From the NCBI RefSeq assembly GCF_041381155.1, contig NC_091149.1:12478609-12542608 (forward strand): a DNA stretch of 64,000 nucleotides, in the 5' to 3' direction. A model generated the notes under the pieces. It saw only the letters and a program-made list of their open reading frames with translations. It had not been told where the DNA came from and did not search any database. Numbering within the stretch: the first letter of the stretch is position 1; the number at the start of each line of letters is the position of its first letter. The DNA comes from Argopecten irradians (taxonomy: Eukaryota; Mollusca; Bivalvia; Pectinida; Pectinidae). The position numbers were made by a program, and so were the translations under genes. Shown here piece after piece: positions 18,491-63,719 of this stretch.

Positions 18491-20471
18491 TAAAAACATA
18501 GTGATTTACTACTAGTGATCTTTGGATGTTGGTACATATATCTTACAAGCCAGAGATTTACTAAACAAGCAGTAGAATGTTGAGTTTCAGACTTTCTACA
18601 AACACAGTTTTATCATTCATATTCCATGCTCTGGATAAAGATCATCAGTAGGTATTTGTAGAATCTACAGACTGGAAAGTGAAATTAAAGCAAATTCCGC
18701 TTTACAGAGGTGTTATGCAAACACTTTATAAGAAATTAAAGAATCAATAAGTTTGATATCAGATACACTAGCTAGCTGATCATGACACCTGCAAGTTACG
18801 TTTTTTAAATAATGTTTGTCCTGTGTACACATTCAGATAATCCTTTCCACAATCAATCAAAACTAAAACATTAACATATTGATATAACCTTGAATCAATC
18901 TTTCTAAAAGATATAATCCAATATTCATGCTGAATACATGTATATGTACATATCCATGAAATTAATCACTGAGGTTGTCATTCAGATATGTACATAGATC
19001 ATAACTATACTTTATCATACAAACCACAATCAAACTATGCTTATTCTACATCCAATGTCTCTATAGCTACATGAAGATGGTAACTGGAACTGCATCATGT
19101 GGCATATATATATACATACTATAGTCGAGCAATCTGTTCAAACTACTGGCTTGAACTAGTACTATACCAGACCTCAAATCCTTTACTTGCTATTTGCAAG
19201 TAGAGGTCGCATAAAAGCGAGTGAAAAAAAAAATAATTTAAATATATACATTCTTTTTTGAGCAAGTGGTTTTCATCACAGGCAACTGTAACAATGACAT
19301 AATGTTTGTACATGTGAATAGATAGATTTTATTTGAAAATATGGGGACATATTTCTTATTTTAAGGTTGCATGGATATACCTGTACATCTCACATCATCA
19401 TGCAAAAATAAATCATATCTATAACTTAATTTTGCATATATATGGAAATTTAAAGATGCTCCACCGCCGACAGAGCGTAAATGATATTCTTCATTTGAAC
19501 AATAATTGGTGTTTAATAGTGTATATATATGCCTAATTAAAACAAAAAATAATATAAAATAATTTATTTCGCCTTTGGTGCATGGGCAATCAGTACTTCA
19601 TTCCATATAGGACATAGTGCCACGGAATTTTTTCGGGATGCAATTAATTATTTTCATATTTTCAACTTGAAGTAAAATTAGAAGCTCTAACTTTTTAACG
19701 GTGGTAATGGTGTAAAGTAAGTAACTTTTGTAACTGAAGAAAAATACTAAATCGTCTGCTCCTGTTTTTGATAGTGAAAAAATACCATTTGTCAGCGGTG
19801 GAGCATCTTTAACCAAAAGTACAAAGATATTAGAGCGTTTCCAAATTTACAACACTTGCCATTTTTAGCATGTGATGTAAAATGTTAAATCTGAGGCCCT
19901 GAATACCAAAGAAATATTATGATAAAAGTGCAATTGATTTTCAATCCAATAGTTATTAGTAAACTTATGGTTTCAACTTTAACTTATCAAGCATTGATTT
20001 AGAGGAGGGGGCATCAATCTTAATGTAAGTTATATCTATGAAAGAAAAATAAACCCCCCACACACACACCTTAGGCCTCCATTCAACTTTCTCTAAATCG
20101 GTTAAATTTGAAGATCATTTTCTGATTTAGAAGTAATGATTATGCACAATACCACAAAAAAGGAAACAGCACCTATGGATTAACCAAATCATTTTTAAGG
20201 ATAACTATAATTTAAAATTATATGGTAATCCGAGAAAATTGATATAATGTAACAAACAACAACACTAAGTATTTCAATCAATAAATAAACATTTGTTTCT
20301 TAGACATTATTGCTAAATCTCAATCATCATAGATTAAAGATTTCCTGATCTAACATGTCGAGAGTGAAGCATAGCCGAGTACTCAAGATTGCGATATGTT
20401 TGTACAGTAGAGAATGATAAACAGCTGATATCATCAGACAATCAAAACCATTGTTTATATATGTTACTTAC
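18491..20471. other. No gene seen (outside the 19454 MITE)
   Basis: Probably intron of the UBE2E-like gene just downstream of exon 2. A short CACACACACA run lies near 20059. Confidence 0.45.
19454..19808. mobile_element. TTAA-type MITE family A, copy 2 (complete)
   Basis: Begins AGATGCTCCACCGCCGACAG, ends TGTCAGCGGTGGAGCATCT; 355 bp, flanked by TTAA on both sides (19450-19453, 19809-19812). No coding. Confidence 0.9.
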
Positions 20472-29567: not shown

Positions 29568-29923
29568 AGATGCTCCACCGCCGACAAATAGTATTTTTTA
29601 ACTATCAAAAACAGGAGCAGACGATTTAGTATTTTTCTACAGTTACAAAAGTTACTTACTTTACACCATTACCACCATTGAAAAGTTTGAGCTTCTTATT
29701 CTAAGTCAACTTAAAAATATGAAAAATAATTAATTGCATCCCGAAAAAATTCCGACGCACTATATCCTATATGGAATGAAGTACTGATTGCGCATGCACC
29801 AAAGGCAAAATGAAAACATATATATTATTTTTTGTGTTAATTGGACATATATACACACGATTGAACACCAATTATTGTTCAAATAATGAATATCATTTAT
29901 GCTCTGTCGGCGGTGGAGCATCT
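29568..29923. mobile_element. TTAA-type MITE family A, copy 3 (inverted)
   Basis: Same terminal repeats (AGATGCTCCACCGCCGACA, TGTCGGCGGTGGAGCATCT), reverse orientation to copy 2; flanks TTAC and TTAA. Small open frames here are element noise. Confidence 0.9.
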
Positions 29924-30006
29924 TTAAAATTAAATTGTGTATATTTGCAAATTACGTTCGTATTGGTACTCGAAATCCATCTTCTGTCATACTTAGGCCA
30001 AAAATA

Positions 30007-30465
30007 TATGTCTGTTTAGGGTTACACGACCGACCCAAATATTTTTTCCATTTTTCTACGAAAAAATATATTAAAAGTTGAGGTTTCTATCTCAGAGTCC
30101 GGTTCGGGCATTATTTTAGAGTAGCGTGAAAGACAATTAAAAAAACAACGAGCTGTTGGAGAACAGCAAAGCTCGCCTATTCAAAAACCCCTAAAGGGCC
30201 CCAAATTGGTTGTATTATCACGTTCAGCATCCATACACATTAGGAAAATAAAATCATAAACATTTATGATGACTTAAGCTTAAACAATTGACGAAACAGA
30301 AACTTGCTCAAAAACTTTAACGTGAAATGGGACGCCAACGCTGACGCCGACGCCGACGCCGGGGTGACAACATTAGCTCCCCCTATTCTTCGAATAAGCG
30401 AGCTAAAAAAAGATCCCGACCTACCAACCCTATTTTTTGACAATGTAACCCTAAACAGACACATA
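30007..30465. mobile_element. Inverted-repeat element with GTCTGTTTAGGGTTAC ends
   Basis: Left ATATGTCTGTTTAGGGTTAC, right GTAACCCTAAACAGACACAT. The interior includes AAAACTTTAACGTGAAATGG and a GACGCC repeat, and GAGCTGTTGGAGAACAGCAAAG. Open frames on both strands here are repeat-born. Confidence 0.72.
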
Positions 30466-33400
30466 TATATATTTTTTTGGCCTCGTCAATATACTGTATA
30501 CGTTTTCATCACCAACATAAAACAATTTAGTATCCATACATTCCACGAGGTTTCAGATCTAAACCAATGTATTTGTACAGGCCATGTATTACTATTTCTG
30601 TTGGTGCACTATTTTGTTTATAAAGTTATAAATCCTTGACTGCATGGAAATCGACCGTTCTCACTAGCTAGTTCCAATTCTGTCACTACCCCATGAACGC
30701 TGCTACTCCCAAAGCATTTATAAGGCTGTAAGAGTTATTTCCCCTGTTACAATGAAGCAAATGCGAAGTTCTACAATGAAAAAAAACCCACATACTGCCG
30801 TCTTCAAATAAGTTCTACAATAAAAAAAAATAAAATAAAAAACAACAAAAAACAAACAGACTTATGACTTCAAATCTAATCATTAAATCTTGAAACACAA
30901 CAACCCAACTGTCCACATTCTAGCTACAATTTTATTCATAAAATTACAAAAATAACTTTCTAATATAGGTTTTATTCTTGAAAACCAGTTAAGAGAATTA
31001 ACATGTTCACAAATAATCGTAGATAAATGCATAAATACTACACAAAGTACTATTTATATGTATAAACAATGTCATGTTGTAGTTATTCAAGTCCATATAA
31101 AGAGAGTTTCCCTGTACAAACTGGCTTATTGTCAAAGTCATTTGAGGATAATACCTGTATAAATACCGTAGCAATATTATTTTCTAGTTTTCAGGAGAAC
31201 TAATAAATTTTACTGTATCCATTACCAGACACACTCCTGTTCAGAGAAAACAATATTTCACTTTTTCAAATATAAGATTGGATTTTTTTTTTACAATCGA
31301 CAAACTTAACACACAAGCTATTCTATATGGTTTAAATAGCGATCTAAAGTCTATAACATTGTTAAAGTGAATAGTTCGGGATTCAGTTACAAAGAAAACC
31401 AGTCCTAAACGCGTTCACTGGCCTTCCAAAAGTTCTCACATATTAATACGACGGTCAAGTTCTGCTTAGTTTCCCAGTTCTGACCATTAAAGTAAAGAAA
31501 AGTTGAAAGCATTGAAAGCGAGGCTGTGTGGAAATGTAACCACGGACATAGTGAGCCGGGAGGACGTTTTAGAATTCCCATACTTTAGATTAATTTCTTC
31601 GTACGCAGACAGATTTTGACGAGAGATTTTATTTTTCCATTTCATAAGAAATTATACTGGATACATTCACACCATTTTTACAGACTTCAGCCATCCTTGT
31701 CCGACTGTTCACTTTAAATGGTTAGATTTAGATTAAAATTTTTTGTTAGATGATATTGACTTGTATCGTAAAAGTACAAATTCAATCTGCAAATGTTAAA
31801 AGCAATGAAATATTTTAATTATTCCAAAAAAAAAATGAAGTGTATGTTATTTATAATTTTAATGCCCCCTTTTCAACTCTGAGTACAGAAGTGTATGTGA
31901 CCTTGACCTCTTGATTACATAAGTATATGTGACCTTGACCCTTGACCTCTGCCTAGAGTTTTGTTTACGGGTAGGCCTACATTGAAATATTTTGCGAGAC
32001 TGCAGTGTTTAAGATCACATGCTAAAGATGTATACAAAACTTCTGAACACTTGTGATCTTTCTCAAAATGTACAATCAAAATAGAAAATTATGGAATAAA
32101 CAATTCAATATGAGCCTTTAACGAAAAACATTTCTTTAGAATGTTCATTATACAGTAAAGGAAATCTTTAAAATAGTTGTTCATTTCCTTATACATTTAT
32201 TACACTCTTGAAATATATAAATATGAATGTGTGAAGTTCGAGAAAAATAAGTCTTTTAAATGATATATATATATTGTACATACAAAAGTAAAATGCAATT
32301 TCTTTTGTTCATAAATAACCCACTTAAATGCAATTATAATTAAAAAAAAAGTGTCATTTGGTGTAAATTTTTTATAAAAGAATCATTAAAAATATTTATT
32401 TTCTTAAAATAAAGCAAACAACTAAACAATATTCTATTGACAACCTTTTTTGATTAATTAGTCGGTAATTAATTAATTCCACTTAATCTATCAAAATCAA
32501 AATTAATATTAACAGCTATACATATGGATCAACAAGGTTATCAGTGCATTGTAAACATATTTTGATATTTTGATCTCAAAAGCATATTATGAAATTGATA
32601 ATTATAGAAAAAATGTTAAAAATTTATAAACGAAACAAAAACATCATGATTATCATTAATTACATTATCTATGTGAAAATTTACATTATATTAATGTTTT
32701 AAACGGATGTATGACTTTTAGCGCGGGATATATTGTTTTTGTTAACAATGATAATGTGTATTAAATATATCAAAAACTAGACATCCGTACTGTATAGATG
32801 ATAAAACTGGGTTTTTGATCGTGTTACATTTTAAAGGTATATATTCTTTTGTTTTAATGAAACTGAAGGGGTTAAAGATACTCCACCGCTGACAGAGCGT
32901 AAACGATGTTCATCATTTGAACAATAACTGATGTTTAATTGTGTATCTATATGTCTGATTATCACAAAAAGTAATATAAATAATCTATTTTGCAATTGAT
33001 TATTTTTGGTATTTAAGTAGATGTAAAATTAGAAGCTTTCACTTTTTAAAAGTGGTAATGGTATAAACTGTATAGAAAGAATTTTTTTTAACTGAAGAAA
33101 AATACTGAATTGTCTGCTCCTGTTTTTGATAGAGTAAAAATACCATTCGTCAGTGGTGGAGCATCTTAAGATGCATGTGTTTGTTTCAACAACAATGAAA
33201 ACCATAATCTTTACATAGATACCACATTGATACACTCAGGATAATTTAGCATTACAAATTGTAATGGAGTTTCAAGTAGGATTTTCGTTTTTTGTTTAGA
33301 ATTTCAGCACTTTACTGATGTCCAAACAAGGGAATGTACCTATTCTGTTTTCACATTTTACAAAATTACCTCCCTTACAAGTAGGTAATAGTAGTTACCT

Positions 33401-34352: not shown

Positions 34353-34808
34353 TCAGATGATCAGCTGCATCTTTTCTTCCTGACTTATCCTTATTCCTTC
34401 AAGTTCTTCTTCATTCATTCCTTCACTTTCATCCATTTTCTGTCTTTTCTTTTTTTGTCTCAATTGTACATTATCTACATCTTTCTTTTGATTGTTCTGA
34501 TTCTCTTTTTCCACCTTGTTCTCCTCACTATTTTTATCATCCTGCTTTCTTACAGGAAGTTGGTCCCCAGCAACAGGAAGTTGATCCCCTACAACAGGAA
34601 GTTGGTCATCTGTTACAGGAAGTTGGTCTTCAGCGACAGGAAGTTGATTTATTTCTGCGTAGTTGACTGGATCTCCGATGGCGTCCTTCAGCCGTTGCCA
34701 GAAGTGAGGTTGTATTGTTTCATCCGTCCAGTCCAGGAATGTTTTCCCCATTAATTTCCCAGGAACCTTACATTTGTCATATTTGATCAGAATCAGTACA
34801 TCCTTTCT
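34353..34808 (-). CDS. Ig-TIR receptor last exon: end of TIR domain and repeat-bearing tail
   Basis: 151 codons plus stop TGA at 34355-34353. It contains DVLILIKYDK, FLDWTDE and box 3 HFWQRLKDAIGDP, then five copies of a 7-residue unit (x-QLPV-xx, mostly DQLPV), and a Lys/Glu/Gln-rich end that is probably disordered. The 21-base coding minisatellite may vary in copy number between individuals; that is inference. Confidence 0.9.
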   Translation of the reverse strand, partial: RKDVLILIKYDKCKVPGKLMGKTFLDWTDETIQPHFWQRLKDAIGDPVNYAEINQLPVAEDQLPVTDDQLPVVGDQLPVAGDQLPVRKQDDKNSEENKVEKENQNNQKKDVDNVQLRQKKKRQKMDESEGMNEEELEGIRISQEEKMQLII

Positions 34809-37800
34809 CTGAAATGGTGAGCAAAATTTGATCATATACATTTTTCTTATACAAATTCATAGAAAAAATGTTTTGGCAAATTCAAACCTTTACCATATCA
34901 ATAGAAACTGACCTGTGCTATGACCTTATTGCGAGTCTGTTTTAACACTAACACTGACCTGTGCGATGGCTTTATTGTGAGCTTGTTGCAGCTCAAACTG
35001 TCCCCACATTGACCTCAGAAAGTTCTTGGACATCAGGACAATTGTCTTACGGCTCTTGTAGATGGAATCCATGACATTTTCAGCAATAGCCATCCCTGCA
35101 GAAAGAATAAGGGCTATGATAACCAGCTGTGTCCAGTTAAGTGAAATTTTTAAAATTTTAATGCATGTGTACATTATTTTATTTTTTGGAAAAAATGTCC
35201 CAAGGGTCACTATCATATAGTTTGAATAAAGACATAAATATACATAATTACATATGAGGCCAAAAATAATGCATATAATGTTTGCTATAACCCGACTGAC
35301 CTAGGAAAATCGACTTGACTCAAAATGATTTATCTTATTTTAAAAATATGTAGCAAAGCAAAATATTATATTTCACTTTTTATACACCTAACCAGCAATA
35401 AAAATCATGGTTGAGTTATGGCAAAAAAAAAAAAAAAAAATACAACAATATATATTTTACTTTAGGCCTGATATGGAGTAGATAAGACATTGCTTTTATA
35501 CATCTAATGGACACACATTTCAGTTTTTGTGAAAAATGTGTAGAGAGATACCCGGTAATTCGTAAAACTCTATTTAAAGAAGAGTAAATTTCCTGCTCTG
35601 CACTATAATATTTAAGTGAATTATCTGGTAAAAAGTATGATATTAAAGGGAATTATCTGGTACAAAGTATGATATTAAAGGGAATTACCAGGTCCAAAGT
35701 ATTATATTAAAGGGAATTATCTGGTACAAAGTATGATATTAAAGTGAAAACCTGGTCCAAAAGTATGATATTAAAGGGAATTACCTGGTACAAAGAAGGT
35801 TATTCAAGTGAATTATCTGGTACAAAGTATGATATTAAAGGGAATTACCTGGTACAAAGTATGGCATTAAAGAGAAAACCTGGTACAAAGTATGATATTC
35901 AAGTGAATTATCTGGTACAAAGTATGATATTAAAGGGAATTACCTGGTACAAAGTATGGCATTAAAGAGAAAACCTGTTACAAAGTATGATATTCAAGTG
36001 AATTATCTGGTACAAAGTATGATATTAAAGTGAAAACCTGGTCCAAAAGTATGATATTAAAGGGAATTACCTGGTACAAAGAAGGTTATTCAAGTGAATT
36101 ATCTGGTACAAAGTATGATATTAAAGTGAAAACCTGGTCCAAAAGTATGATATTAAAGGGAATTACCTGGTACAAAGAAGGTTATTCAAGTGAATTATCT
36201 GGTACAAAGTATGATATTAAAGGGAATTACCTGGTACAAAGTATGGCATTAAAGAGAAAACCTGGTACAAAGTATGATATTCAAGTGAATAACTGGTACA
36301 AAGTATGATATTAAAGGGAATTACCTGGTACAAAGTATGGCATTAAAGAGAAAACCTGTTACAAAGTATGATATTCAAGTGAATTATCTGTTACAAAGCA
36401 TGATATTAAAGGGAATTATCTATACAAAATATGAAATTACAGGGAATTACCAGGTCCAAATTATGATATAAAAGGGTATTACCTGGTACAATGTATGATA
36501 TTATTAGTTACACAGTTTGTTAGTGACTTAATACGGAAAAATATTGGGTCTAAAATAAACTTAAAAGGAAATTACATGTTTATTTTAGACCCAATATTTT
36601 TCCGTATCAGGTCACTAACAAACTATGTAACGAATTTATCCCGTCGAAGACACTTTCAATAAAGTAACTGCAAAATGCATTATGTACTGAGTATGGAAAC
36701 CAAAACGACTCAAAACTTAATTCAATTTTAACCTCATTGAAGACTCGAATGTGTTGTCATGGTTCATTTCTGTTAAATAATCCTAAATAAGTGTTGCCGA
36801 TTTCGGTTTGCTTTGAAAGTGGTCATCAGCGCTATCATTCAAACATTTTGTCTCCATCTCGTTGAGTGCCGTCGTCGCGAAGCGTTACTTGACCGCCATC
36901 TTGTTGCTAATGACATTAGGGGCAAAGAACGATAACTCTATCGTCCAAACCTGATACTATTTCTACTAACCTAATACGACTATATATTGGATATCATGTG
37001 ACGCCATTTTAACCAATAGGAATACAAGATTCTTGTCTGAGGCGGGATGATAAAGGGTACAAAGCGTGATATTAAAAGGAATTACCTGGTACAAAGTCCT
37101 TGAAATCTATGTTAATGTTGTAGCCCATGCTGAGAAGCTCCTTGAAGAGTTTGTTTTTTACCCAATCCTCATCCTCACTGCTGTATGATATAAACACATC
37201 ATATTCCAGTTGATAACCCGGGACTAGAGAACAAAACAAAATGCTAATCAAAAGTTCATAAAAACTACAACTCTTGCAAACTACTTCATCCCCGTCAAAA
37301 AATTTGGAAATGACAGGTTATCAGAAAAGGACTCCATATGGGATGATATCAGATCGTATATAAAACAGGGTGAGAATATAAGGATCTGTATTTTATAATC
37401 GTATCATGACTGCCCTCAAACAAGATGTCTACCCTAGTTGCAAGCAGCTGTAATGATCCATATCTAATATATAATCTTAAATTCTTTTCAATTGGAATAG
37501 CCTATGTTCAAAAACAAACCAACACCAATCTTGTATTTAGAATTCACCGTTTTGAAAGTTACTTTCTGGAAAATTATTTTAATTACTAGTACTGACATAG
37601 CTGAGCTTTATATAATGACAGTAAATCGTTTCATAAATACCATAGAAATGACAGCATGATTTAAGTCATATAAAAAATAAGCTAGTTCACAGTACAGTCA
37701 AATACAATAAATATTCTTACAACAAAATCCCATGGGTGATTTGTGTAAAACAAACAATACTTATAATAAAGCAATTTTCTTTCTCCCCGAAGATACCGTA

Positions 37801-40800
37801 TTCGACCAAATAAGTGCCCAGGGCGCTTAAGAAATTGAAGCAATTCAGGGGGCGCTTAATAGAAACAATTTTGGACTTGCCTTTCATAAAATTATTCTAA
37901 AAAGTAAGCCATGAATAAAGAAGAAATCAGTAAGAAAACCAAAACAGTTTTCATATTTTCAGTCTGCATTTAATTTGAAGTAAGTGAAATTGAAGCGCGA
38001 AAAAGGGAGTGGCACTTATAGTGATGAGGGGGGCGCTTATTGGGGTCGAAATTTACTGTATATCCGAGACACCTCTACTTACCATCGTATTTCTCTGGAT
38101 CCAGAGGTGGCCATTCAATATGTTCCTTTTTACGCCTTATTCGGATGATCACTATGGCAACAGTTGCCATGGCGATCGTTACAAAGCCACCCACTGCTAT
38201 CACAGCAATCTGCCAGGTCGTCAATTTGAATCCAGTTCCTGATCAAGAAATTATAGACAATGAAATATCAAAAATAACAGAAGTTTGATCCTTCTAAATT
38301 GTCTTATAATAATTGACAGATTGTTTAATGTGAAACTGATCAGTCTGAAGAATTTCACATACAAAAAGTACATGTAAATGTCACATGTAAACAGTTTATG
38401 TATATTCCAGTAATTATAATTAAGTATTACATAACAACTTCTAGTATATAAAAGTACATACAAGTGTGGCTTTTATTTTCAGACATGCCAGACCATTCTT
38501 GGAATTTGTTAAGATAGGTAGGGGGTCCTATAAGAGGACAGGGTATGTTCAAGGAACATGTGCATTGCTTTGGACATTTAACAGTCAATAATGATATTTT
38601 ACCAATTTTACAATTAACCAGTATACTTATATAACCTCGGAAATGAAAAAAAAAAAATCTAATCATTTCAATGTAAAACTCACCTGGCTGGAACTGCTGT
38701 AGTGTAATTGTTTTATTATCCCTACCAAAGTTATTTTTAGCCACACATGTATATTCACCAAGGTCTTCACTCTGCAATAGAACAAATAGTATACAATGGT
38801 TATAAAACAGTGATAGATTCTATTTCTCACTCTATATTATATGATCTCTCTACATCCTATGATCATACAGGAGAGATAGATTCTATTTCTCACTCCACAT
38901 TGTATGATCATACAGGAGAGATAGATTCTATTTCTCACTCCACATTGTATGATCATACAGGAGAGATAGATTCTATTTCCCACTCCACGTTGTATGATCA
39001 TACAGGAGAGAAAGATTCTATTTCTCACTCTACATTGTATGAGGAGATAGATTCTATTTCTCACTCCACGTTGTATGATCATACAGGAGAGAAAGATTCT
39101 ATTTCTCACTCTACATTGTACGAGGAGATAGATTCTATTTCTCACTCTACATTGCATGATCATACAGGAGAGATAGATTCTATTTCTCACTCCACATTGT
39201 ATGATCATACAGGAGAGATAGATTCTATTTCTCACTCTACATTGTATGAAGAGATAGATTCTATTTCTCACTCCACATTGTATGATCATACAGGAGAGAT
39301 AGATTCTATTTCTCACTCTACATTGCATGATCATACAGGAGAGATAGATTCTATTTCTCACTCCACATTGTATGATCATACAGGAGAGATAGATTCTATT
39401 TCTCACTCTACATTGTATGAAGAGATAGATTCTATTTCTCACTCTAGATTGTATGAAGAGATAGATTCTATTTCTCACTCCACATTGTATGATCATACAG
39501 GAGAGATAGATTCTATTTCTCACTCCACATTGTATGATCATACAGGAGAGATACATGTAGATTCTATTTCTCACTCTAGATTGTATGAAGAGATAGATTC
39601 TATTTCTCACTCCACATTGTATGATCATACAGGAGAGATAGATTCTATTTCTCACTCTACATTGTATGAAGAGATAGATTCTATTTCTCACTCTACATTG
39701 TATGGAGAGATAGATTCTATTTCTCACTCTACATTGTATGATCATACAGGAGAGATAGATTCTATTTCTCACTCTACATTGTATGATCAAACAGGACAGA
39801 TAGATTCTGTATCTCTATCAAACAGTAATGATAAATTCTATTTCTCTCTATACATTATATAGTTATAAAGGAGAGATAGATTCTGTTTCCCAATCTTACT
39901 TTACAAATGATAGATTCTATTTCTCACTCTACATTGTATGATCATACAGGTGAGAAAGAATCTAGTTCTTTATCTATCACACAGTAATGATAGATTCTGT
40001 TTCTCTTTCACACACTGATGACAGATTCTATTTCACAGTTTACATCACAGTGATTAATTCCTTTTTTCTAACTTTCTGTTTCTCAGATAGAATGTATTCT
40101 GTACTTACTGTGACATTTGTGATGTTGAGGACCAATTCCTTCCTGCCGTCAGGATGATCCAGACTGTCCCAGTAGTAATGAGAAGTGTCATCTAACTCAC
40201 TGCCATTCCGTGTCCATATTCTCTGTGTAAACTGATCAGAAACATCATCAAGTATAATATTCTTTTCTCTATTTTTTTGTGCAATATGATTGATAAACTG
40301 TATTAATGCAAGTTACCACAATCGCTAATATCTTATTTTATATACAGTTATGTATAGTTAACTTTTTCCATATTATGTAGTGAGCAACTTACCAGCATCC
40401 CTGATGAGCCGTCTGTCATTGTACAACTGATCTGGATGCTGTCTCCCAAAGAAACTACCTTGACCCCATTCACAGGAGAAGTTGCCACAATAACTGGTGC
40501 ATTTTCTGGATCATATGCTAAAAACAAAAGGATGTGTTAAGTTTTAATATAAAACACATATATTTATGTGTTGATACAGGCTCGATTTTCAAGTTTTTAG
40601 GTTTTACCAAAATTGCAATACATAACTAAATGAAAAGTGAATCCAACTGAAGAGCATTTTTCCTCTTATTACATTTAAGTCTAACAATAGAAAAGGATGA
40701 AAACTTTACGATTTACTGCTAGATTTTCCAAGCATTTGTACAGAATATCCCAGGGTAATCTCATCTACTAGAATTACTTCCCTTAGTTTCACTTGATCAG

Positions 40801-43290
40801 TACTGACGGAATGAAACGAACGGAATCAACCCTGGTACAAATGTAGATCAGAATGATTCAACAATGATTCCCAAAGGTGGATTGCTAGTTGAATTGTGTC
40901 ATGTGTGTATCCACACCCCATTCCCACCGACTAGCAATCCATCTTTGAGTAAAAAGTTCAAAACCTATGTGAGAACTGTAAAATATTTCTTTTTACCAAT
41001 TGCAATAGATGTACCATCTTTTTACTTACGGACGACGGTTTCGAATCCACTATATGAACAGGTGAGTCCCTCGTTATCTGTGATAGTGCAGGTGTAATTT
41101 CCCCCATCAGTATCCATTAGAGGCCAGATTTTCAGGACTTGGTCATCCATTTCAAAAAGAGCAGTGATGTTGTTAAGGATACTATAGTATTTAACTTTTA
41201 TGTATAAAAAAGTACCCAAAATATATTATGTAAAACTCCATCCACCTCAAACATGCTCAAGATTTCAAATGTTTCCTCTTTATTTAAAGATGCTCCACCG
41301 CCGACAGAGCATAAATGATACTCATTATTTGAACAATAATTGGTGTTTAATCGTGTATACATATGTCTAATTAACACAAAAAGTAATTCAAAATAATTCA
41401 TTTTGCTTTCGGTGCATGGGCAGTCAGTACTGCATTCCATATAGGACATAGTGCCACACAATTTTTTCGGGATGCAATTAATTATTTTTTATATTTTTAT
41501 CTTGAAGTAAAATTAGAAGGTCAAACTTTTCAATGGTGGTAATGGTGTAAAGTGAGTAACTTTTGTAACTGAAGAAAAATACTGAATCGTCTGCTCCTGT
41601 TTTTGGATAGAGAAAAATTACCATTTGCGGGCAGGGGGAGCATCTTTAATCTTTGATAAATCTGACAATAGATAAAATCTCTAAAACAAGAAAAATTCTA
41701 TGTAGCTTGCTAACCTAATTACGTTTGAGACCTGTATGCCGTATGATGTAGGGCCTAAGATCTTTAATCAAGCTCTCTCCTTTGAATTCCCCAAACCTAA
41801 TATAAGAATACAAGACTTTAGTTTTCATTGGTCTTTAAATTACAGGTAAGAGCTTGTTACATTCCTAACTCAGGTTACATTGATTCAAAAGACTCATGGA
41901 GGGAGAACCTTAGAGGTTAATAGGGTCCATAAATCTCGTTACTTCAGGTTTTCAACTTCCAGGTACATTCCAGAATCCTGGTGGCTTTAGTAACTAGCAA
42001 CAAGGATGCAGTGAGATATATCATGACACTTTAAAACCCATCAAAATTTCATTTCTCATGGTTAGTTAAAACCTGTGTATATAACCTGCTACACAGTTAT
42101 GACATCCTTGATACTCCAGGGGTTCCAATCACTTACAATCTCTACACCCCTGGACTATCTCATAGTAAAACTGGAGACAGCTCCCCACCCCCTGGGACAA
42201 CATTTATTTATGAATCTGAGCAAATCACAAGCCAGCAAAAAATTCCTTTAATACTACAGAGAGAGCGACTCTCTACTATAAAGCCACACAATCAACTCCA
42301 GTGTACCTTTATATGGCCCTTTTGATGTGCATCAAAGGACTAAATTACCTATTCTGTTCTGTTGCCTTCAATTTTACTATGAGATCATCCAGGGGTGTAG
42401 AAGTCGGAAGTGATCCCTGGAGTACCGAGTTTGGCGGTATGAAGAACCCTACAGGTTTTATACGTACAGCTTCATGCTTTCACACCATTTACCTTGTTAC
42501 ATAGCATAAACACAAATTCCCCATTTGTGGATCTAACTAGTGATGGGAATCGGTTGAAATTTTATGATCGATCATCATTTATTTTGTAACCAATCGATGA
42601 TCGATTAAAATCGATTATATTTGACCGCGAATGTTTTCCAGGAAAATTGTTCATTGCCATGTTCTCATCTCGCTTATGTTTTCGTATACTCTGAATGTTT
42701 ACATTACTACGTAGTGCTTATGCGTTCTTCAATTTGTTTAGAGGCTTGGTATTTGAAATGATTTGAGCAACAATTAATTAACACACACAAGCGATTGATT
42801 GTGACAAGTTTTCTATGACATTTCTTGCATGTTTTACTGACCGGCTAATTATACACTTTTGTTTACCATGATATCGGGCAATTCCGACAAAACTCGATTA
42901 CATATTTCTTAATCAATTAATTGGTCAAACACCCCAAACCAATGATGCTTGATGAAGTGGATTAATTGGAACACCACTAGCTCTAACTGTTACCGAATTC
43001 CCTAAAATAGACAAAGGATATCGGTCCGAAGGTTTGATGACTTCTCCATCTTTAATCCAGGTTACGTTGAAGCTTGGCGTCAGTGTGGTATTGACAGTAC
43101 ATGTAAACACTAACTGGCTGGACCCTCCGGCTGTGGCGGGACTATCCGGCCACCGAGGACTGGGGCTAAATCTTGGTCCCTTAGAGCGCAGACAATCACC
43201 AGAGATAGGGCTGTACGAGCTCCCCACAGGCGTCAGGTAGGGTAAACATACAAGGGAGATAACCAGTGTGAGTGGCACCATTCTTCTTTG
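34353..43290 (-). CDS. Ig-TM-TIR receptor (interleukin-1-receptor-like), nearly complete
   Basis: Single-pass receptor expected to sense a ligand with extracellular Ig folds and signal through TIR-TIR contacts with MyD88-type adaptors; that role is family knowledge. Nine coding exons are read on the minus strand: 43290-~42960, 41181-41030, 40517-40393, 40222-40109, 38771-38684, 38238-38083, 37223-37086, 35095-34959, 34808-34353. From exon 41181 onward every junction is GT/AG and the phases agree. Order: signal peptide (MVPLTLVISLVCLPYL), Ig fold 1 (Cys in FTC, Trp in VTWIKDG), half fold ending in GGNYTC, complete Ig fold (SIQISCT, IWTRNG, GEYTCVA), membrane segment followed by RIRRKK, TIR box 1 YDVFISYS, BB loop DFKDFVPG, box 3 HFWQRL, then a charged tail. 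Between 41181 and 42960 an exon appears to be missing. The TIR part is intact, so the gene is probably functional. IL1R/IL1RAPL-like names are possible; no exact orthologue is claimed. Confidence 0.87.
34959..35095 (-). CDS. Ig-TIR receptor exon: middle of the TIR domain
   Basis: 137 nt. It reads MAIAENVMDSIYKSRKTIVL, then MSKNFLRSMWGQFELQQAHN, the alpha-C/beta-D region typical of TIR domains (SxxFLxSxWCxxEL type, here with Gly in the usual Cys position). Acceptor TTCTGCAG, donor GTCAGTG. Confidence 0.9.
35607..36500. repeat. 32-bp minisatellite copied from the TIR exon/intron boundary
   Basis: About 27 units of GGTACAAAGTATGATATTAA plus AGGGAATTACCT or a variant. On the gene's strand this is CTTTGTACCAG|GTAATTCCC then TTTAATATCATA, the last 11 bases of the exon at 37086 with its donor and 21 intron bases. 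Partial units remain at 37056-37086. Confidence 0.95.
36507..36631. mobile_element. 125-bp hairpin element in the TIR intron
   Basis: Arms of 54 bp (GTTACACAGTTTGTTAGTGA, ATACGGAAAAATATTGGGTC, TAAAATAAAC) with about four mismatches and a loop of 17 bases. It sits at the right edge of the 32-bp array. Confidence 0.9.
37086..37223 (-). CDS. Ig-TIR receptor exon: TIR box 1 and BB loop
   Basis: 138 nt. It encodes EYDVFISYSSEDEDWV (box 1), KNKLFKELLSMGYNI and NIDFKDFVPG, the BB loop in which the Pro-Gly pair is conserved in IL-1R-type TIR domains. The donor CCAG|GTAATT and the adjoining coding bases are the source of the minisatellite at 35607-36500. Confidence 0.9.
37794..38060. mobile_element. 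TA-flanked MITE beside the transmembrane exon
   Basis: Left TACCGTATTCGACCAAATAA, right (inverted) GGCGCTTATTGGGGTCGAAA to TACTGTA: terminal repeats of about 27-30 bp with GGGCGCTTA subterminal words. It ends 22 bases from the donor of the exon at 38083. Non-coding. Confidence 0.85.
38083..38238 (-). CDS. Ig-TIR receptor exon: transmembrane segment and juxtamembrane region
   Basis: 156 nt, phase 1/1. A hydrophobic run (WQIAVIAVGGFVTIAMATVA, then IVII) is followed by the positive stop-transfer cluster RIRRKK and by WPPLDPEKYDG, a linker common before TIR domains. An inverted-repeat element ends 22 bases from its donor. Confidence 0.88.
38684..38771 (-). CDS. Ig-TIR receptor exon: F-G strands of the membrane-proximal Ig
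   Basis: Continues directly with SEDLGEYTCVAKNNFG, the canonical D-x-G-x-Y-x-C motif, and ends TITLQQFQP. Acceptor CTATTGCAG, donor GTGAGTTT, phase 1 out. A large minisatellite begins about 45 bases upstream of the acceptor. Confidence 0.88.
38815..39865. repeat. 45/30-bp minisatellite upstream of an Ig exon
   Basis: Units of GAGATAGATTCTATTTCTCA, CTCCACATTGTATGATCATA, CAGGA (45 bp) mixed with 30-bp units that lack TGATCATACAGGAGA or similar. Degenerate copies continue to about 40090. Long open frames on both strands result from units being multiples of 15. Confidence 0.95.
40109..40222 (-). CDS. Ig-TIR receptor exon: C-E strands of the membrane-proximal Ig
   Basis: 114 nt, 38 codons, phase 0 both ends. 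It holds the core Trp (RIWTRNGSEL) and the E strand ELVLNITNVT with a glycosylation sequon. Donor GTAAGTAC. Confidence 0.86.
40393..40517 (-). CDS. Ig-TIR receptor exon: A-B strands of the membrane-proximal Ig
   Basis: 125 nt, phase 1 in and phase 0 out. It reads YDPENAPVIVATSPVNGVKV, then GDSIQISCTM with the first Ig cysteine. Donor GTAAGTTG, acceptor TTTTTAG. Confidence 0.85.
40873..40948. mobile_element. Short hairpin in an Ig-TIR intron
   Basis: CAAAGGTGGATTGCTAGT and ACTAGCAATCCATCTTTG form 18-bp arms around a 40-base loop. Confidence 0.7.
41030..41181 (-). CDS. Ig-TIR receptor exon: second half of an Ig fold
   Basis: Encodes NNITALFEMDDQVLKIW, then the F-strand signature DTDGGNYTCT and a G strand. 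Acceptor ACTATAG, donor GTAAGTAAAA (phase 1). It needs a preceding exon in phase 2 carrying the first Cys; that exon was not identified. Two N-glycosylation sequons (NIT, NYT) are present. Confidence 0.8.
41288..41645. mobile_element. TTAA-type MITE family A, copy 5, in the Ig-TIR gene
   Basis: Starts AGATGCTCCACCGCCGACAG after TTAA and ends GGGAGCATCT before TTAA; the right terminal repeat carries mutations (GCGGGCAGGGGGAGC). It lies about 106 bp from the acceptor of the exon at 41181. Confidence 0.9.
42111..42425. mobile_element. Inverted-repeat element, family B copy 2
   Basis: Ends ATACTCCAGGGGTTCCAATC and GTGATCCCTGGAGTAC; inner arms TCTCATAGTAAAACTGG and CAATTTTACTATGAGAT. It lies in the first coding intron of the Ig-TIR receptor gene, opposite in orientation to copy 1. 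Confidence 0.75.
42960..43290 (-). CDS. Ig-TIR receptor exon: signal peptide and first Ig half
   Basis: The acceptor TTTTTAACCAG ends at 43291 and the ATG is at 43281-43279. A hydrophobic start is followed by a Ser/Pro-rich stretch, then LVFTCTVNTT (B strand Cys) and FNVTWIKDGEVI (C strand Trp). The Y-x-C half of this fold is not in the exon. The donor is unsure: GTAACAG after GGGAATTCG or GTGTTCC after GCTAGTG are both possible, so the left edge is approximate. Confidence 0.75.
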
Positions 43291-58732: not shown

Positions 58733-61700
58733 CTGAAATAAATTAAAATTAAATTATTTAAATAGCATTAATTAATATCTGAATTTATCATATACACACA
58801 CCGTAAGGAGTAAATACGTTATTTAATTTAAACCGTCTAAGATTATAAATTAAAAAACTTTCAAAGAAGTCAGTGATTGCCAGCGTTATTTATAACGTCG
58901 ATACTGATTTGAGGCATAATTTGTCACGTCGACATTGATTGGAGGCATCATTTGTAACGTCGATACTGTTTGGAGGCATTATATGTAACATCGACATTGA
59001 TTTAAGGCATTATTTGTAACGTCGATATTGATTGGAGTCAATATATGTAATGTCGATTTTGGTTGGAAAATTATTTGTAACGTCGATATTGGTTGGAGGC
59101 ATTATTTGTAACAAATCGATATTGGTTGGAGGAATTATTTGTAAAGTCGATATTGGTTGGGGGGCATTTATTTGTAAAGTCGATATTGGTTGGAGGAATT
59201 ATTTGTAACGACGATATTGATTTGAGGCATAATTTGTCACGTCGACATTGATTGGAGGCATCATTTGTAACGTCGATACTGTTTGGAGGCATTATTTGTA
59301 ACGGCGATATTTATTGAAGGCATTATTTGTAATGTCGATATTGATTGGAGGCATTATATGTAACGTCGATATTGGTTGAGGAATTATTTGTAACGTCGAT
59401 ATTGATTGGAGGTATTTTTTGTAACGTCGACATTGGTTGGAGAAGACATTATTCATGTTAATCAGTAAGTAAACATGATTTAAACCTTAAAATAAACGTC
59501 ATACCTACCTTGTTTGCAGAGGCTTTGACACATTTAAATATACACACCAAAGCCACGCCCATTCCTAGGCCACCAACTGTTGCCACGGTGACGTATATCG
59601 CTGAAACAGTCATTATTCAATGTGTTTACATATTTAAAATAAAATTCATGAGAATATATGGAAGGTCCATGTTGCTACATTTCCAAAAATAGTGCACCAA
59701 CAAAGAATATAATTTCTTATTCGTATGTCTATTGTATTCTTTAAAACTGAGGTGCATTGGTTATGTATTCGGATTAAGTTGTCGCCGTGAAAGTCAACGT
59801 AAGGTTTCAGCATTCAGAATTATAAAGTAATTAACAATTCATGTGAATTTTACCTTATTCATTGACAAAATATTACAAATTAAATCAATATAGACACACC
59901 ATTCGAATATTGAATTATGAATTAATACTTAGTGATTCCAGCGATTGTCAATGCTTTGTGTACATTTTTTATTATTGTTCATTAACAATGATAACTGTGT
60001 AAATGACGACTAACGTATGAGCTAAAATGCCAATAACATCACTGTAAAGGTACGACTTTCGAAGCATCAAAACTTTGAACAGGTTAGCGAATAAAGAATT
60101 CGCGCTTTTCACAATATAAAATACTAGACAACGCAATTTTTCTTCAGTTACAAAAGTTACTTACTTTATACTATTACCATCATTGAAAAATTTGAGCTTT
60201 TTATTTAAATTCAAGATAAAAAAATATTGAAAATAATCAATTGCTTCCCGTGAAAAGTCCATGACACTATGTAAAATAAATTGTATTTTTGTGTTAATTA
60301 AACACATATACACGATTAAACATCAGCTATTGTTAAAATACATTATATTATTTATGCTCTATCGGCAGTGGAGTACGTCAGTACCTGATATCTAATTAAA
60401 GTTATTGATCGGTATAGCTTAGTCTAAACGAAATCCTTACTTATCTGGGGGTCTGCTTGGTCCTGTTCGTCACTAGACACGCTCTGCTTGTTACCGGCGG
60501 CTGTAGCGAAGATAACTGGAGTTGTTGTAGTAAAGGTGGACAGAGTTGTCGGTGATGTATTCGGGATAGTCGTAATTGTACTTGGATCGCTAGTTGTGGT
60601 TGTTGGAGTGGTAGTTGTGGTTGTTGGAGTGGTAGTTTGTGGTTGTTGGAGTGGTAGTTGTGGTCGTTGGAATGATAGTTGTGGTTGTTGGAATGGTAGT
60701 TGTTGTTGTTGGAGTGGTAGTTGTTGGAGTAGAAGTTGTAGTTGTTGGAGTGGTGGTTGTGGTTGTTGGAGTTGTGGTTGTAGTTGTTGGAGTGGTAGTT
60801 GTTTGAGTTGTAGTTGTAGTTGTTGGAGTGGTGGTTGTTGTTGTTGGAATTGTAGTTGTTGTTGGAATGGTAGTTGTGGTTGTTGGAGTTGAAGTTGTAG
60901 TTGTTGGAGTTGTAGTTGTTGGAGTGGTGGTTGTGGGTTGTTGGAATGGTAGTTTTAGTTGTTGGAGTGGTAGTTTGAGTTGTAGTTGTAGTTGTTGGAG
61001 TGGTGGTTGTGGTTGTTGGAGTTGTGGTTGTAGTTGTTGGAGTGGTAGTTGTGTTGAGTTGTAGTTGTTGGAGTGGTGTTGTTGTGAGTTGGTTGAATTG
61101 TAGTTGTTGTTGTTGGAATGGTAGTTGTGTTGTTGGAGTTGAAGTTGTAGTTGTTGGAGTTGTAGTTGTAGTTGTTGGAGTAGTGGTTGTGGTTGTCGGA
61201 ATGGTAGTTGTAGTTGTTGGAGTGGTAGTTGTTTTGAGTTGTAGTTGTAGTTGTTGGAGTGGTGGTTGTTGTTGTTGGAATTGTAGTTGTTGTTGTTGGA
61301 ATAGTAGTTGTTGGAGTGGTAGTAGTGGTTAATTGAGTGGTAGTTGTGGTTGTTGGAGTGGTGGTTGTGGTTGTTGGAGTTGTGGTTGTGGTTGTTGGGG
61401 TGGTAGTTGTAGTTGTTGGAGTGGTAGTTGTGGTTGTTGGAGTGGAAGTTGTGGTTGTTGGAGTGGTAGTTGTGGTTGTAATTGTTGGAGTGGTAGTTGT
61501 GTGTTGAGTTGTAGTTGTGGTTGTTGGAGTGGTAGTTGTAGTTGTAGTTGTTGGAGTGGTAGTTGTGGTTGAGTTGGTAGTTGTGGTGTTGTGGTTGTTG
61601 AGTGGTAGTTGTGGTTGTTGGAGTGGTAGTTGTGGTTGTTGGACTTGTAGTTGCAGTAGTTGTTTCTGAAAGTGTTGTAGTTGAACACTGGAGAGATGGT

Positions 61701-63719
61701 GACGCACAGGTTCCACAGCATTCGTCTGGATATCCGGGACAATGTCCAGTGGTACAGCCAAGCACCTTGTCTCCGTATTCGCAGCCTATCAGTTTGAAGT
61801 TCAAAGTCAAACAAGATATTAGAATTTAATTATAATCTCGAAAAAAGTTAAATGTATAAACTGAAACTTGAAAAAATGATCTTGAACCAGGTGCCCGACT
61901 ACGGGTATCGTTAAGACAATATGATGAAGTCATAAATTATTAAACTTAAGATGCATAATCAGCATCATTAAAATAACAGCACTACTCCGACTGGACCACG
62001 GTACTTAGTAAAACTAATCCGAGTATTCACGTTAAGTGAATTTATATGTTCAATGAAAATACATTTCCATTTCATCATTTAATCACAGTTATTATATACA
62101 TGTATAAGGTTCAGATTTTAAAACTTGAGCAATTGTATCATCTTAATCAAATTGAACAAAAAAGATGAAAAATATTCTCGAATACATTTCAATTGCATAA
62201 TATGTAGATTTTATACGCGAAACGCAAAACAATCTGAACAAATCGTTAACTATCAAAACGCGGAATTAAAACAATGTGAACAAGTGGTTAGCTATCAAAA
62301 CGCGGAATCAAAATAATCTGAACAAGTCGTTAGCTATCAAAACACGAAATCAAAACAAATTGAACAAATCGTTAACTATCAAAACGCGGAATTAAAACAA
62401 TGTGAACAAGTCGTTAGCTATCAAAATGCGGAATCAAAACAATGTGAACAAGTCGTTAGCTTTCAAAATGCGGAATCAAAACAATGTGAACAAGTCGTTA
62501 GCTATCAAAACGCGAAGTCAAAACAAACTGAACAAGTCATTTAGCTATCAAAACGCGAAATCAAAACAATGTGAACAAGTCGTTAGCTATCAAAATGCGG
62601 AATCAAGACAATGTGAACAAGTCGTTAGCTTTCAAAATGCGGAATCAAAACAATTTGAACAAGTCGTTAGCTATCAAAACGCGAAGTCAAAACAAACTGA
62701 ACAAGTCGTTTAGCTATCAAAACGCGAAATCAAAACAAAGTGAACAAGGTCGTTAGCTATCAAAATGAGGAATCAAAACAATGTGAACAAGTCGTTAGCT
62801 TTCAAAATGCGGAATCAAAACAATGTGAACAAGTCGTTAGCTATCAAAACGCGAAGTCAAAACAAACTGAACAAGTCGTTTAGCTATCAAAACGCGAAAT
62901 CAAAACAATGTGAACAAGTCGTTAGCTATCAAAATGCGGAATCAAAACAAACTGAACAAGTCGTTTAGCTATCAAAACGCGAAATCAAAACAATGTGAAC
63001 AAGTCGTTAGCTTTCAAAATGCGGAATCAAAACAATGTGAACAAGTCGTTAGCTATCAAAACGCGAAGTCAAAACAAACTGAACAAGTCGTTTAGCTATC
63101 AAAACGCGAAATCAAAATAATGTGAACAAGTCGTTGGCTATCAAACGCGAAATCAGTGGCCGCAAAAATAAGTTACTTTACAGTTGGTTTGCGTATACAG
63201 CGTAAAAACGACTATTGATAATAGAATATAATTCAATTTTGTTTGTAACGAACATTTTCATTGGCTTAAACATCAACCTATAAATGAAAAAAGGATTGGC
63301 TGAGATAACGGCGTAATGATTTCATAGACAAAAGAGTCCCATAATGAATTTTGAAAATTGAATAGATTATCTTTAGTAAATTGAATTATATGGATTAATT
63401 AGAATATATCTTTTTATGTGATGGAGATATAACAAAAATCTGAGTGTACTTTAAATAATCCGCGAAGTGGTGTATGACGAGAGTATACTCAGAGTTTTGC
63501 GTTATATCTCCATAACATAAAACAATCTATTCAAGTTAATTCTCGGCTATAAAAGTGTGTGTTCACCTGGTTCACACGTGTAATATTCCGCACACGACCC
63601 ACAGCACCTGTCATGGTTACTGTAACCCTCATAACACGACACTGGGGAGTTGGATACCAGCACACTGCAGCTCTGTCCATTCGACACGATACCACTTTGG
63701 TCCCCAAAAGGACAAGAAT
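58715..63719 (-). CDS. Membrane mucin-like protein with Cys-rich modules (5' part outside window)
   Basis: Cell-surface protein of unknown role. Exons on the minus strand: 63719-63567 and 61785-60441 (extracellular), 59600-59509 (membrane) and probably 58732-58715 (tail). The first exon and the start of the second each encode a module with spacing C..GD..C..C..CC-G-[ST]-CA..C, joined phase 1 to phase 1, as in a repeat built by exon duplication. A long Thr/Pro stalk follows, then a non-repetitive membrane-near stretch (PVIFATAAGNKQSVSSDEQD), a single membrane segment and a very short tail. Thr-rich stalks are usually heavily O-glycosylated. The reading frame inside the stalk shifts several times (see 60590-61650). 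The acceptor at 63720 shows that more exons lie beyond the window. The family is not recognised by name. Confidence 0.7.
58890..59447. repeat. 31-bp tandem array with GTAACGTCGATATTG
   Basis: About 18 units of GAGGCATTATTTGTAACGTC plus GATATTGATTG; period 30-31 with some lost bases. It lies in the last intron of the mucin-like gene. Confidence 0.93.
59509..59600 (-). CDS. Mucin-like gene: transmembrane exon
   Basis: 92 nt; joins the phase 1 donor at 60440. It reads IYVTVATVGGLGMGVALVCI, then FKCVKASANK: one hydrophobic span with a GxxxG-like motif and basic residues after it, giving a type I topology. Donor AAG|GTAGGT. Confidence 0.68.
60125..60373. mobile_element. TTAA-type MITE family A, copy 6 (decayed, inverted)
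   Basis: TTTTTCTTCAGTTACAAAAG, TTACTTACTTTATACTATTA and the right end GCTCTATCGGCAGTGGAGTA match the family in the orientation of copy 3. The left terminal repeat is missing. Confidence 0.75.
60441..61785 (-). CDS. Mucin-like gene: Cys module B and Thr-rich stalk exon
   Basis: Acceptor CTGATAG at 61786. It begins GCEYGDKVLGCTTGHCPGYP, DECCGTCASPSLQC, then Thr/Pro repeats of a 21-base unit (TTTTTTP). It ends TTIPNTSPTTLSTFTTTTPV, IFATAAGNKQSVSSDEQDQA, DPQI before donor GTAAGG. Single-base losses in the repeats switch the frame to Asn/His/Tyr/Ser-rich or Gln/Pro/Leu-rich readings, all without stops for long distances. Confidence 0.65.
60590..61650. repeat. 21-bp minisatellite encoding the mucin stalk
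   Basis: On the minus strand the unit is ACAACCACAACTACCACTCC plus A, with many variants and single-base deletions. On the plus strand it is GT-rich (TGGTAGTTGTGGTTGTTGGA). All three minus frames lack stops over long parts. Confidence 0.9.
62225..63150. repeat. 42-bp tandem array with CAAAACGCGGAATC
   Basis: About 22 units of CAAAACGCGGAATCAAAACA, ATGTGAACAAGTCGTTAGCT, AT. Variants (AAACTGAACAAGTCGTTTAG, GCTTTCAAAATGCGG) recur in the same order, so a block of about four units was duplicated several times. It lies in an intron of the mucin-like gene. Confidence 0.95.
63411..63523. mobile_element. 113-bp hairpin element
   Basis: TTTTATGTGATGGAGATATA, ACAAAAATCTGAGTGTACT is inverted as AGTATACTCAGAGTTTTGCG, TTATATCTCCATAACATAAA. 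It lies 44 bases past a mucin exon donor. Confidence 0.8.
63567..63719 (-). CDS. Mucin-like gene: Cys-rich module exon A
   Basis: 153 nt, phase 1 in and out; acceptor CCATTTCAG, donor CCAG|GTGAAC. It reads SCPFGDQSGIVSNGQSC, then SCYEGYSNHDRCCGSCAEYY and TCEPG. Seven cysteines including a CC pair. The open frames of similar size on both strands here are shadows. Confidence 0.75.

What the first reader, a model, noticed from the sequence alone, without database searches (positions are those of the whole stretch)
35607..37090. Minisatellite made of copied splice donors from the BB-loop exon of a TIR receptor
On the gene's strand the exon at 37086 ends ACTTTGTACCAG and its intron begins GTAATTCCTTTTAATATCA. 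The 32-bp array unit is the same boundary: CTTTGTACCAG|GTAATTCCC plus TTTAATATCATA. At least eight units keep CAG|GTAAT intact; others read CAG|ATAAT, which kills the donor. So the intron holds many copies of the true 5' splice site, each with a fragment of the conserved FVPG codons. This could cause donor competition or alternative exon ends exactly at the signalling-critical loop, and the GT-to-AT units look like a counter-change.
Basis: partly seen in the sequence, partly recalled or inferred. Interest (0 to 1): 0.82.

Follow-up and report, generated by a model that had tools for sequence, protein, structure and literature searches.

The report
Intron minisatellite grown from splice junction
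In an animal immune-receptor gene, the short stretch where one exon ends and its intron begins has been copied head to tail about 28 times inside that intron, leaving several look-alike splice signals that are probably mostly silent.

Summary
An intact-looking Ig-TM-TIR receptor gene on the minus strand has an exon ending KDFVP|G (BB loop; donor CAG|GTAATT, 37086/37085). The 42 bp across that junction (12 exon, 30 intron) recur as the ~32-bp unit of a 28-unit array at 36495-35606. In the window's own 846-Mb genome a 64-bp stretch of the array matched 15 places, all at this locus, one being the exon itself. Of 27 other TIR loci fetched, none has an intron at this point and 16 read FVPG or FIPG, so the copying ran from exon to array. 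8 of 28 units keep CAG|GTAAT; 7 equal the true donor.

Every array donor lies beyond an in-frame stop, so any that replaced the true donor would give the same KDFVPGNSF* end, not varied exon ends. The nearest CAG|GTAAT copy is 741 nt from the exon's acceptor, beyond a dispersed ~547-bp element. The GT-to-AT change sits mostly in one linked unit type inside a higher-order repeat, which reads as spread of a variant, not counter-selection. The next exon's donor is also duplicated (46 bp, two copies). Closest precedent: the human IFI6 (6-16) minisatellite. Use of the array donors is untested.

The parts
40393..40516 (-). exon 3 (Ig domain, first part)
   Evidence: splice signals and open frame, Pfam Ig in the joined protein
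40109..40231 (-). exon 4 (Ig domain, middle)
38684..38771 (-). exon 5 (Ig domain, end: YTCVAKNNFG)
38083..38238 (-). exon 6 (transmembrane stretch and juxtamembrane)
   Evidence: hydrophobic stretch WQIAVIAVGGFVTIAMATVAIVII read by eye
37086..37223 (-). exon 7, first TIR exon, ends KDFVP|G (BB loop), phase 1
   Evidence: Pfam TIR_2 and TIR; aligned with TLR2/TLR1 BB loop
37056..37097 (-). founder junction U0: 12 nt of exon 7 + true donor CAG|GTAATT + 30 nt of intron, homologous to the array unit
   Evidence: profile match E 4.2e-9; 31-nt local match with one mismatch to the unit at 36336; 48-nt match at 90%
36503..37049 (-). dispersed short element with a hairpin end, lying between U0 and the array; found at many places in the genome
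   Evidence: genome search with 411 nt of it (36636-37046): 43 matches, this locus included, from 40 scored of 440 candidates; of 9 other copies fetched, all match from about 37067-37043 and 8 of 9 reach 36503-36496
36503..36635 (-). near-perfect hairpin (58-bp arms, 93%) at one end of the element; its 17-nt loop resembles U0
   Evidence: inverted repeat, fold -78.1 kcal/mol, z -21, loop similarity to U0 reached by 0 of 4871 random windows
35606..36495 (-). minisatellite: 28 units of 31-33 bp, each a copy of the exon-7 donor junction, with a higher-order pattern of three units
34959..35095 (-). exon 8, second TIR exon, starts GG-ATG, donor CAG|GTCAGT
34907..34998 (-). 46-bp tandem duplication across the exon-8 donor (two copies, 76%), second donor CACAG|GTCAGT identical
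   Evidence: the repeat finder family D5; score 35 against the next 100 nt, reached by 10 of 6008 random sites; weaker in the wider test, score 29, 90 of 3037
34354..34808 (-). exon 9, last TIR exon and C-terminal tail with an in-frame 21-bp coding repeat, stop

Best explanation
The array is an intronic minisatellite seeded by the exon-7 5' splice junction. A short segment across the junction was duplicated in tandem into the intron by replication slippage or unequal exchange. The intron copies, free of coding constraint, diverged into a few unit types, and groups of three were then amplified as a higher-order repeat. A dispersed hairpin element came to lie among the first copies, parting the founder from the array. 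The gene still splices at the original donor. The 8 well-preserved copies are decoy donors that are probably mostly silent because the true donor is nearest the exon and of equal strength. When one is used by mistake the mRNA carries a stop after FVP-GNSF and is expected to be lost to nonsense-mediated decay. Shown: the gene frame, the homology, the direction exon-to-array, the higher-order pattern, the element, the stop. Inferred: the duplication process, the order of events, the silence of the decoys, the decay.
For: Homology of junction and unit. Locus-specific in the genome: (15 of 15 matches here). Direction: the TIR search gave 70 matches, 30 of them fetched as loci; 3 are this gene; in each of the other 27 an alignment runs across this point with no intron (small gaps in L029 and L035), 21 of 27 read FxPG there and 16 of 27 FVPG or FIPG, with DNA as close as GACTTTGTACCCGG (L036) and GACTTCGTACCAGG (L024-L026) against GACTTTGTACCAG|G here; L038 and L043 overlap, so the 27 are not all separate genes. 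TLR1 and TLR2 share the motif. Higher-order pattern: mean identity 0.869 at lag 3, 0.861 at lag 9 and 0.895 at lag 12 with 7 of 25, 5 of 19 and 8 of 16 pairs identical, against 0.772-0.813 at the other lags from 1 to 13. Element. Intact gene: one stop-free frame of 406 residues over seven joined exons with Ig and TIR domains. Stop after GNSF. Tandem arrays are common here: hand-merged TRF rows cover 13965 of 64000 bases, 10 arrays of 300 bp or more, so one starting at a splice junction needs no special cause.
Against: The intron carries 7 extra donors that score as high as the true one, where 1841 other (overlapping) stretches of that length hold 0.93 on average and at most 5 (weight matrix recalled and human-like); so many equal donors might not be silent. 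The exon-8 donor of the same gene is also duplicated, which could hint at more than accident. The lag-6 identity is only 0.813 with 0 of 22 pairs identical, so the three-unit pattern is not regular. No RNA evidence either way. Distance arguments about exon length come from general knowledge, not from this animal.
Confidence: 0.74

Rival explanations
1. The decoys are used. A share of transcripts splices from array donors to exon 8, giving a retained stop, so that array length tunes the output of full-length receptor through nonsense-mediated decay (a poison extension), or yields a receptor cut inside its TIR domain.
For: Seven array donors score the same as the true donor; CAG|GTAAT persists in 8 of 28 units; a published minisatellite (IFI6) supplies alternative donors that are used (passage).
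Against: The eight lie 741-1439 nt from the exon's acceptor and past a stop; 20 of 28 units do not hold CAG|GTAAT; no transcript evidence.
Confidence: 0.15
2. The units act as zero-length exons for stepwise (recursive) splicing: many copies read CCAG|GT, an acceptor followed at once by a donor, so the intron could be removed in steps.
For: AG is followed by GT in 15 of 28 units (8 CAG|GTAAT and 7 CAG|GTTTT).
Against: The stretch before each AG (ATATCATACTTTGTACCAG) is a poor pyrimidine tract beside real acceptors of the gene (by eye); the intron is only about 2 kb, so there is no need for steps.
Confidence: 0.03
3. The GT-to-AT units are counter-changes selected to silence competing donors.
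For: 10 of 28 units have A at the +1 position, and the remnant next to the true donor has no AG|GT.
Against: 7 of the 10 AT units carry the linked A at column 21, while all ten GTAAT units keep C there. Column 21, which lies outside the donor, varies more (C 13, A 11, T 4) than column 14 (G 17, A 10, T 1), so the donor base is not singled out. Three AT units have C at column 21, so more than one event is not excluded.
Confidence: 0.04
4. The array came first and the exon end, or the intron, was drawn from it (reverse direction, or intron gain from repeats).
For: AGGT-bearing tandem duplications are a published route to new introns (PMC4974935, passages), and none of the 27 paralogous loci fetched has an intron at this point.
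Against: The exon part of the unit encodes a motif shared with those paralogues and with vertebrate TLRs and so predates the array; the exon-8 acceptor has no local copy above background.
Confidence: 0.03
5. The likeness of exon end and unit is chance.
For: The sequence is AT-rich and repeat-rich.
Against: None in 100 shuffles for the 19-mer; 2 of 3037 random sites as good; profile E 4.2e-9.
Confidence: 0.01

Closest known systems
Human IFI6 (6-16, G1P3) minisatellite, Turri, Cuin and Porter 1995 (NAR 23:1854); paper not held, seen as a title in reference lists and in one passage of PMC4526556
   Same: A minisatellite whose units carry a splice donor at an exon/intron junction, in an immune gene
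   Different: There, two downstream repeat units are said to be used as donors, giving three mRNAs (passage); the unit is 12 bp and so keeps frame (recalled). Here the unit is 31-33 bp, lies past an in-frame stop, is parted from the exon by a dispersed element, and no use is shown.
Internal tandem repeats at exon-intron boundaries in human segmental duplications (PMC2812944, passages)
   Same: Minisatellite units of about 30 bp at exon-intron boundaries that can change splicing
   Different: Those vary between paralogues and were checked against transcripts; here one locus in one genome, no transcripts
[quoted passage not shown] PMC4974935, passages)
   Same: Tandem duplication of an AG|GT-bearing segment supplying extra splice sites
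   Different: No new intron is seen here; the copies lie inside an existing intron
Intronic minisatellite CeRep25B near alternative splicing regions in C. elegans (PMC4039745, abstract and outline)
   Same: Intronic minisatellite linked with splicing
   Different: That repeat is over-represented near many alternative splicing regions and carries regulatory motifs; this unit was found at one junction only

Membership tests
Minisatellite that copies a splice donor (IFI6 kind) | tandem array whose unit contains the junction sequence with the 5' splice site | tested here: met
Minisatellite that copies a splice donor (IFI6 kind) | array units are used as alternative donors in mRNA | not testable with these tools
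   no RNA data; use in place of the true donor would give ...KDFVPGNSF*
Minisatellite that copies a splice donor (IFI6 kind) | unit length a multiple of three, so that variant mRNAs stay in frame (recalled for IFI6; may not be defining) | tested here: not met
   units of 31-33 bp, mostly 32; stop after GNSF
Ig-TM-TIR (IL-1-receptor-like) receptor gene | Ig domain(s), one transmembrane stretch, TIR domain in one open frame | tested here: met
   transmembrane stretch read by eye; exons upstream of exon 3 not settled
Intron gained by tandem duplication (Rogers model) | donor-side and acceptor-side sequences of the intron are copies of each other | tested here: not met
   exon-8 acceptor has no local copy above background (score 18, reached by 2546 of 3037 random sites)
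Dispersed satellite or transposon-borne repeat | unit found at many places in the genome | tested here: not met
   15 of 15 matches at this locus (lower bound by the tool's own note)

The most novel reading that the evidence does not exclude
The array works as a built-in donor decoy bank: 7 to 8 copies equal or nearly equal to the true 5' splice site compete for U1 in proportion to array length, each productive hit giving a decay-bound mRNA cut at the BB loop, so that array length, if it differs between individuals, sets receptor dose. The duplicated exon-8 donor of the same TIR domain, also behind a stop, would be a second such valve.
Probability: 0.1. Interest if true: 0.66.

Novelty: new member of a known kind. 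Interest (0 to 1): 0.42.

Why it matters
It is a clear case of a minisatellite whose birthplace can be named to the base, because the founder is pinned by coding constraint in the exon and by paralogues. It supplies a natural series of identical decoy donors at graded distances from one exon, useful for asking how strongly distance and order, and not donor strength, decide splicing. It also shows that such an array can begin at a splice junction in a repeat-rich genome without evident harm to the frame.

Tried and rejected
Acceptor copies: the large array in the upstream intron (38858-40034) looked as if it might copy the exon-5 acceptor (TAGAGTGAG against CAGAGTGAAG), but that acceptor scored 14 against the 100 nt upstream, reached by 2145 of 6008 random sites, and 18 in the wider test, reached by 2546 of 3037; dropped. 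None of the 7 acceptors scored above what at least 10% of random sites reach (lowest: exon 4, 318 of 3037; exon 6, 1344 of 6008). Donors of exons 3 to 6 show no copy; in the within-100-nt test exon 3 scores 19 (266 of 6008) and exons 4-6 are at background. In that same short-range test the exon-7 donor scores only 18 (404 of 6008), since the array proper begins 590 nt away. A search for the exon-8 junction with up to 3 mismatches in 26 found only the exon itself: the second copy differs by more. I first read the 36503-36635 hairpin as a feature of the array; genome copies show it belongs to a dispersed element. The idea that AT units are selected was weighed by linkage and set aside. In one search three of 28 units were cut one base out of register; one search repeats the lag and donor counts in register, and its figures are used here. 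Viral and prokaryote contigs hold no exact match to a 25-mer of the unit, which says little for an animal gene. Rfam gave nothing in the window at gathering thresholds. Seven paper searches of one open-access library listed no paper whose title or shown abstract describes this array; I did not read all listed papers. The donor weight matrix is recalled and human-like. No tool named the taxon; a genome of 846 Mb with hits on contigs C1-C16 and two short ones made me think of a scallop such as Argopecten (recalled, untested; one search did not settle it).

Full report
Gene. On the minus strand, seven exons joined by eye from splice signals (40516-40393, 40231-40109, 38771-38684, 38238-38083, 37223-37086, 35095-34959, 34808-34354) give one stop-free frame of 406 residues with an Ig domain and a TIR domain (Pfam TIR_2 3.5e-21, TIR 2.3e-19, ig 3e-10). 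A hydrophobic stretch in exon 6 lies between them. Further Ig-like sequence lies upstream (around 43281 and 41150) but I did not settle those exon ends. The TIR part aligns best with TLR2 and TLR1 in the PDB, with KDFVPG over RDFIPG and RNFVPG.

Observation. The donor of exon 7 is CAG|GTAATT at 37086/37085. A 32-bp tandem array covers 35604-36503 and can be cut into 28 units. The exon junction matches the unit over 42 bp, 12 in the exon and 30 in the intron, and over 48 bp at 90% in the repeat finder. Chance is excluded by three counts: no hit in 100 shuffles, 2 of 3037 random non-array sites with as good a local copy, and a profile E-value of 4.2e-9.

Donor states. Of 28 units, nine read CAG|ATAAT, eight CAG|GTAAT, seven CAG|GTTTT, two CTG|GTAAT, one TAG|ATAAT, one CAG|TTATT. 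Seven are identical to the true donor over nine bases, and with the recalled weight matrix no other GT in the intron scores higher; 1841 other, overlapping stretches of 1990 nt hold 0.93 such donors on average and at most 5.

Not a dispersed repeat. The window lies in a genome of 845,758,899 bases. A search of it with a 64-nt stretch of the array gave 15 matches, all at this locus: 14 in the array and one at the exon junction (G000:C16:12515664-12515705, which is window 37056-37097). The tool warns that counts are lower bounds and very common words are skipped.

Direction. The TIR search of the same genome gave 70 matches, of which 30 were fetched as loci. Three are this gene. In each of the other 27 an alignment runs across the point where this gene has its intron, with no intron there (small gaps in L029 and L035); 21 of 27 read FxPG and 16 of 27 FVPG or FIPG (L038 and L043 overlap, so these are not 27 independent genes). 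The DNA is close too (GACTTTGTACCCGG in L036, GACTTCGTACCAGG in L024-L026). The exon part of the unit is therefore older coding sequence, and the array is the copy.

Growth. The units fall into a few types with a three-unit pattern: mean identity 0.869 at lag 3, 0.861 at lag 9 and 0.895 at lag 12, with 7 of 25, 5 of 19 and 8 of 16 pairs identical, against 0.772-0.813 at the other lags from 1 to 13; lag 6 is among the low ones (0.813, 0 of 22), so the pattern is not regular. The A at +1 goes with an A at column 21 in 7 of 10 AT units, while all ten GTAAT units have C there. One change, or a few, spread by amplification explains this. Column 21, which lies outside the donor, varies more than the +1 base. 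So the 'counter-change' reading has no support, though it is not strictly excluded.

Between founder and array. Right after the founder unit there is a remnant (GCTTTGTACCCTTTATC, no AG|GT), then about 547 bp that are a dispersed element: a 411-nt piece gave 43 matches, this locus included, from 40 scored of 440 candidates. Nine other copies were fetched; all match from about 37067-37043 and 8 of 9 reach 36503-36496, the ninth (L013) stopping at 36636. Its hairpin end folds at -78.1 kcal/mol (z -21). In this copy the hairpin tip reads CATGTAATTTCCTTTTAA, much like the founder unit CAGGTAATTCCTTTTAA and sharing its T at column 22, where all 28 array units have C; 0 of 4871 random windows score as high. 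None of the nine other copies shows this: five have a full GC-rich tip, two part of one, two lack the tip. A repair of the tip copied from the nearby junction would explain it; this is inference.

Second case. The exon-8 donor is also duplicated: a 46-bp tandem repeat, two copies at 76%, with CACAG|GTCAGT identical in both. Against the next 100 nt its score is reached by 10 of 6008 random sites, about 1% after allowing for six donors; in the wider test it is weaker (90 of 3037). Use of the second copy would also meet a stop (QVSVSVKTDSQ*). The donors of exons 4 to 6 and the seven acceptors are at background; exon 3's donor is weakly above it in one of two tests (266 of 6008).

What it does. 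If the spliceosome passes the true donor, the exon reads on into GNSF*. Every array donor is beyond that stop, so all used in its place give one and the same truncated product, expected to be destroyed by nonsense-mediated decay (general knowledge). The CAG|GTAAT copies lie 741-1439 nt from the exon's acceptor, against a 138-nt exon. I take them as mostly silent. That no transcript data are available here is the main gap.

Known kinds. The human IFI6 (6-16) gene has a minisatellite that provides multiple donors (Turri et al. 1995: title in reference lists; the paper is not held; a passage in PMC4526556 says two downstream repeat units serve as donors). PMC2812944 (passages) reports tandem repeats of about 30 bp at exon-intron boundaries in human duplicated genes that alter splicing. 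PMC4974935 (passages) covers intron gain by AGGT tandem duplication. This locus is of the first kind in anatomy, and differs in unit length, frame and the lack of shown use. With 13965 of 64000 bases of the window in tandem arrays, an array seeded at a junction is not astonishing in this genome.

Noticed in passing
34907-34998: 46-bp tandem duplication across the exon-8 donor of the same TIR domain; second donor CAG|GTCAGT identical to the first but behind an in-frame TAA.
   Followed up: partly
36558-36580: The hairpin tip of the dispersed element reads, in this copy and none of nine others aligned, about 18 nt resembling the founder junction, as if copied during repair.
   Followed up: partly
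38858-40034: Large array with a 45-bp unit fills most of the intron inside the Ig domain; apart from matches within itself, the genome search listed one weaker match elsewhere, 4.3 Mb away on the same contig.
   Followed up: partly
34552-34646: In-frame 21-bp coding tandem repeat (DQLPVAE-like, 4.5 copies) in the C-terminal tail of the receptor.
   Followed up: no
whole window: Hand-merged TRF arrays cover 13965 of 64000 bases; 10 arrays of 300 bp or more.
   Followed up: no
60424-61830: Long 15/21-bp array with threonine- and proline-rich frames on the minus strand next to a cysteine-bearing stretch, possibly a mucin-like gene (by eye).
   Followed up: no
19361-19597, 29780-30019, 32831-33028, 41198-41488: Four frames share the peptide RHIYTRLNTNYCSNNEYHLCSVGGGASL or a near form of it, probably copies of one mobile element (by eye).
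   Followed up: no
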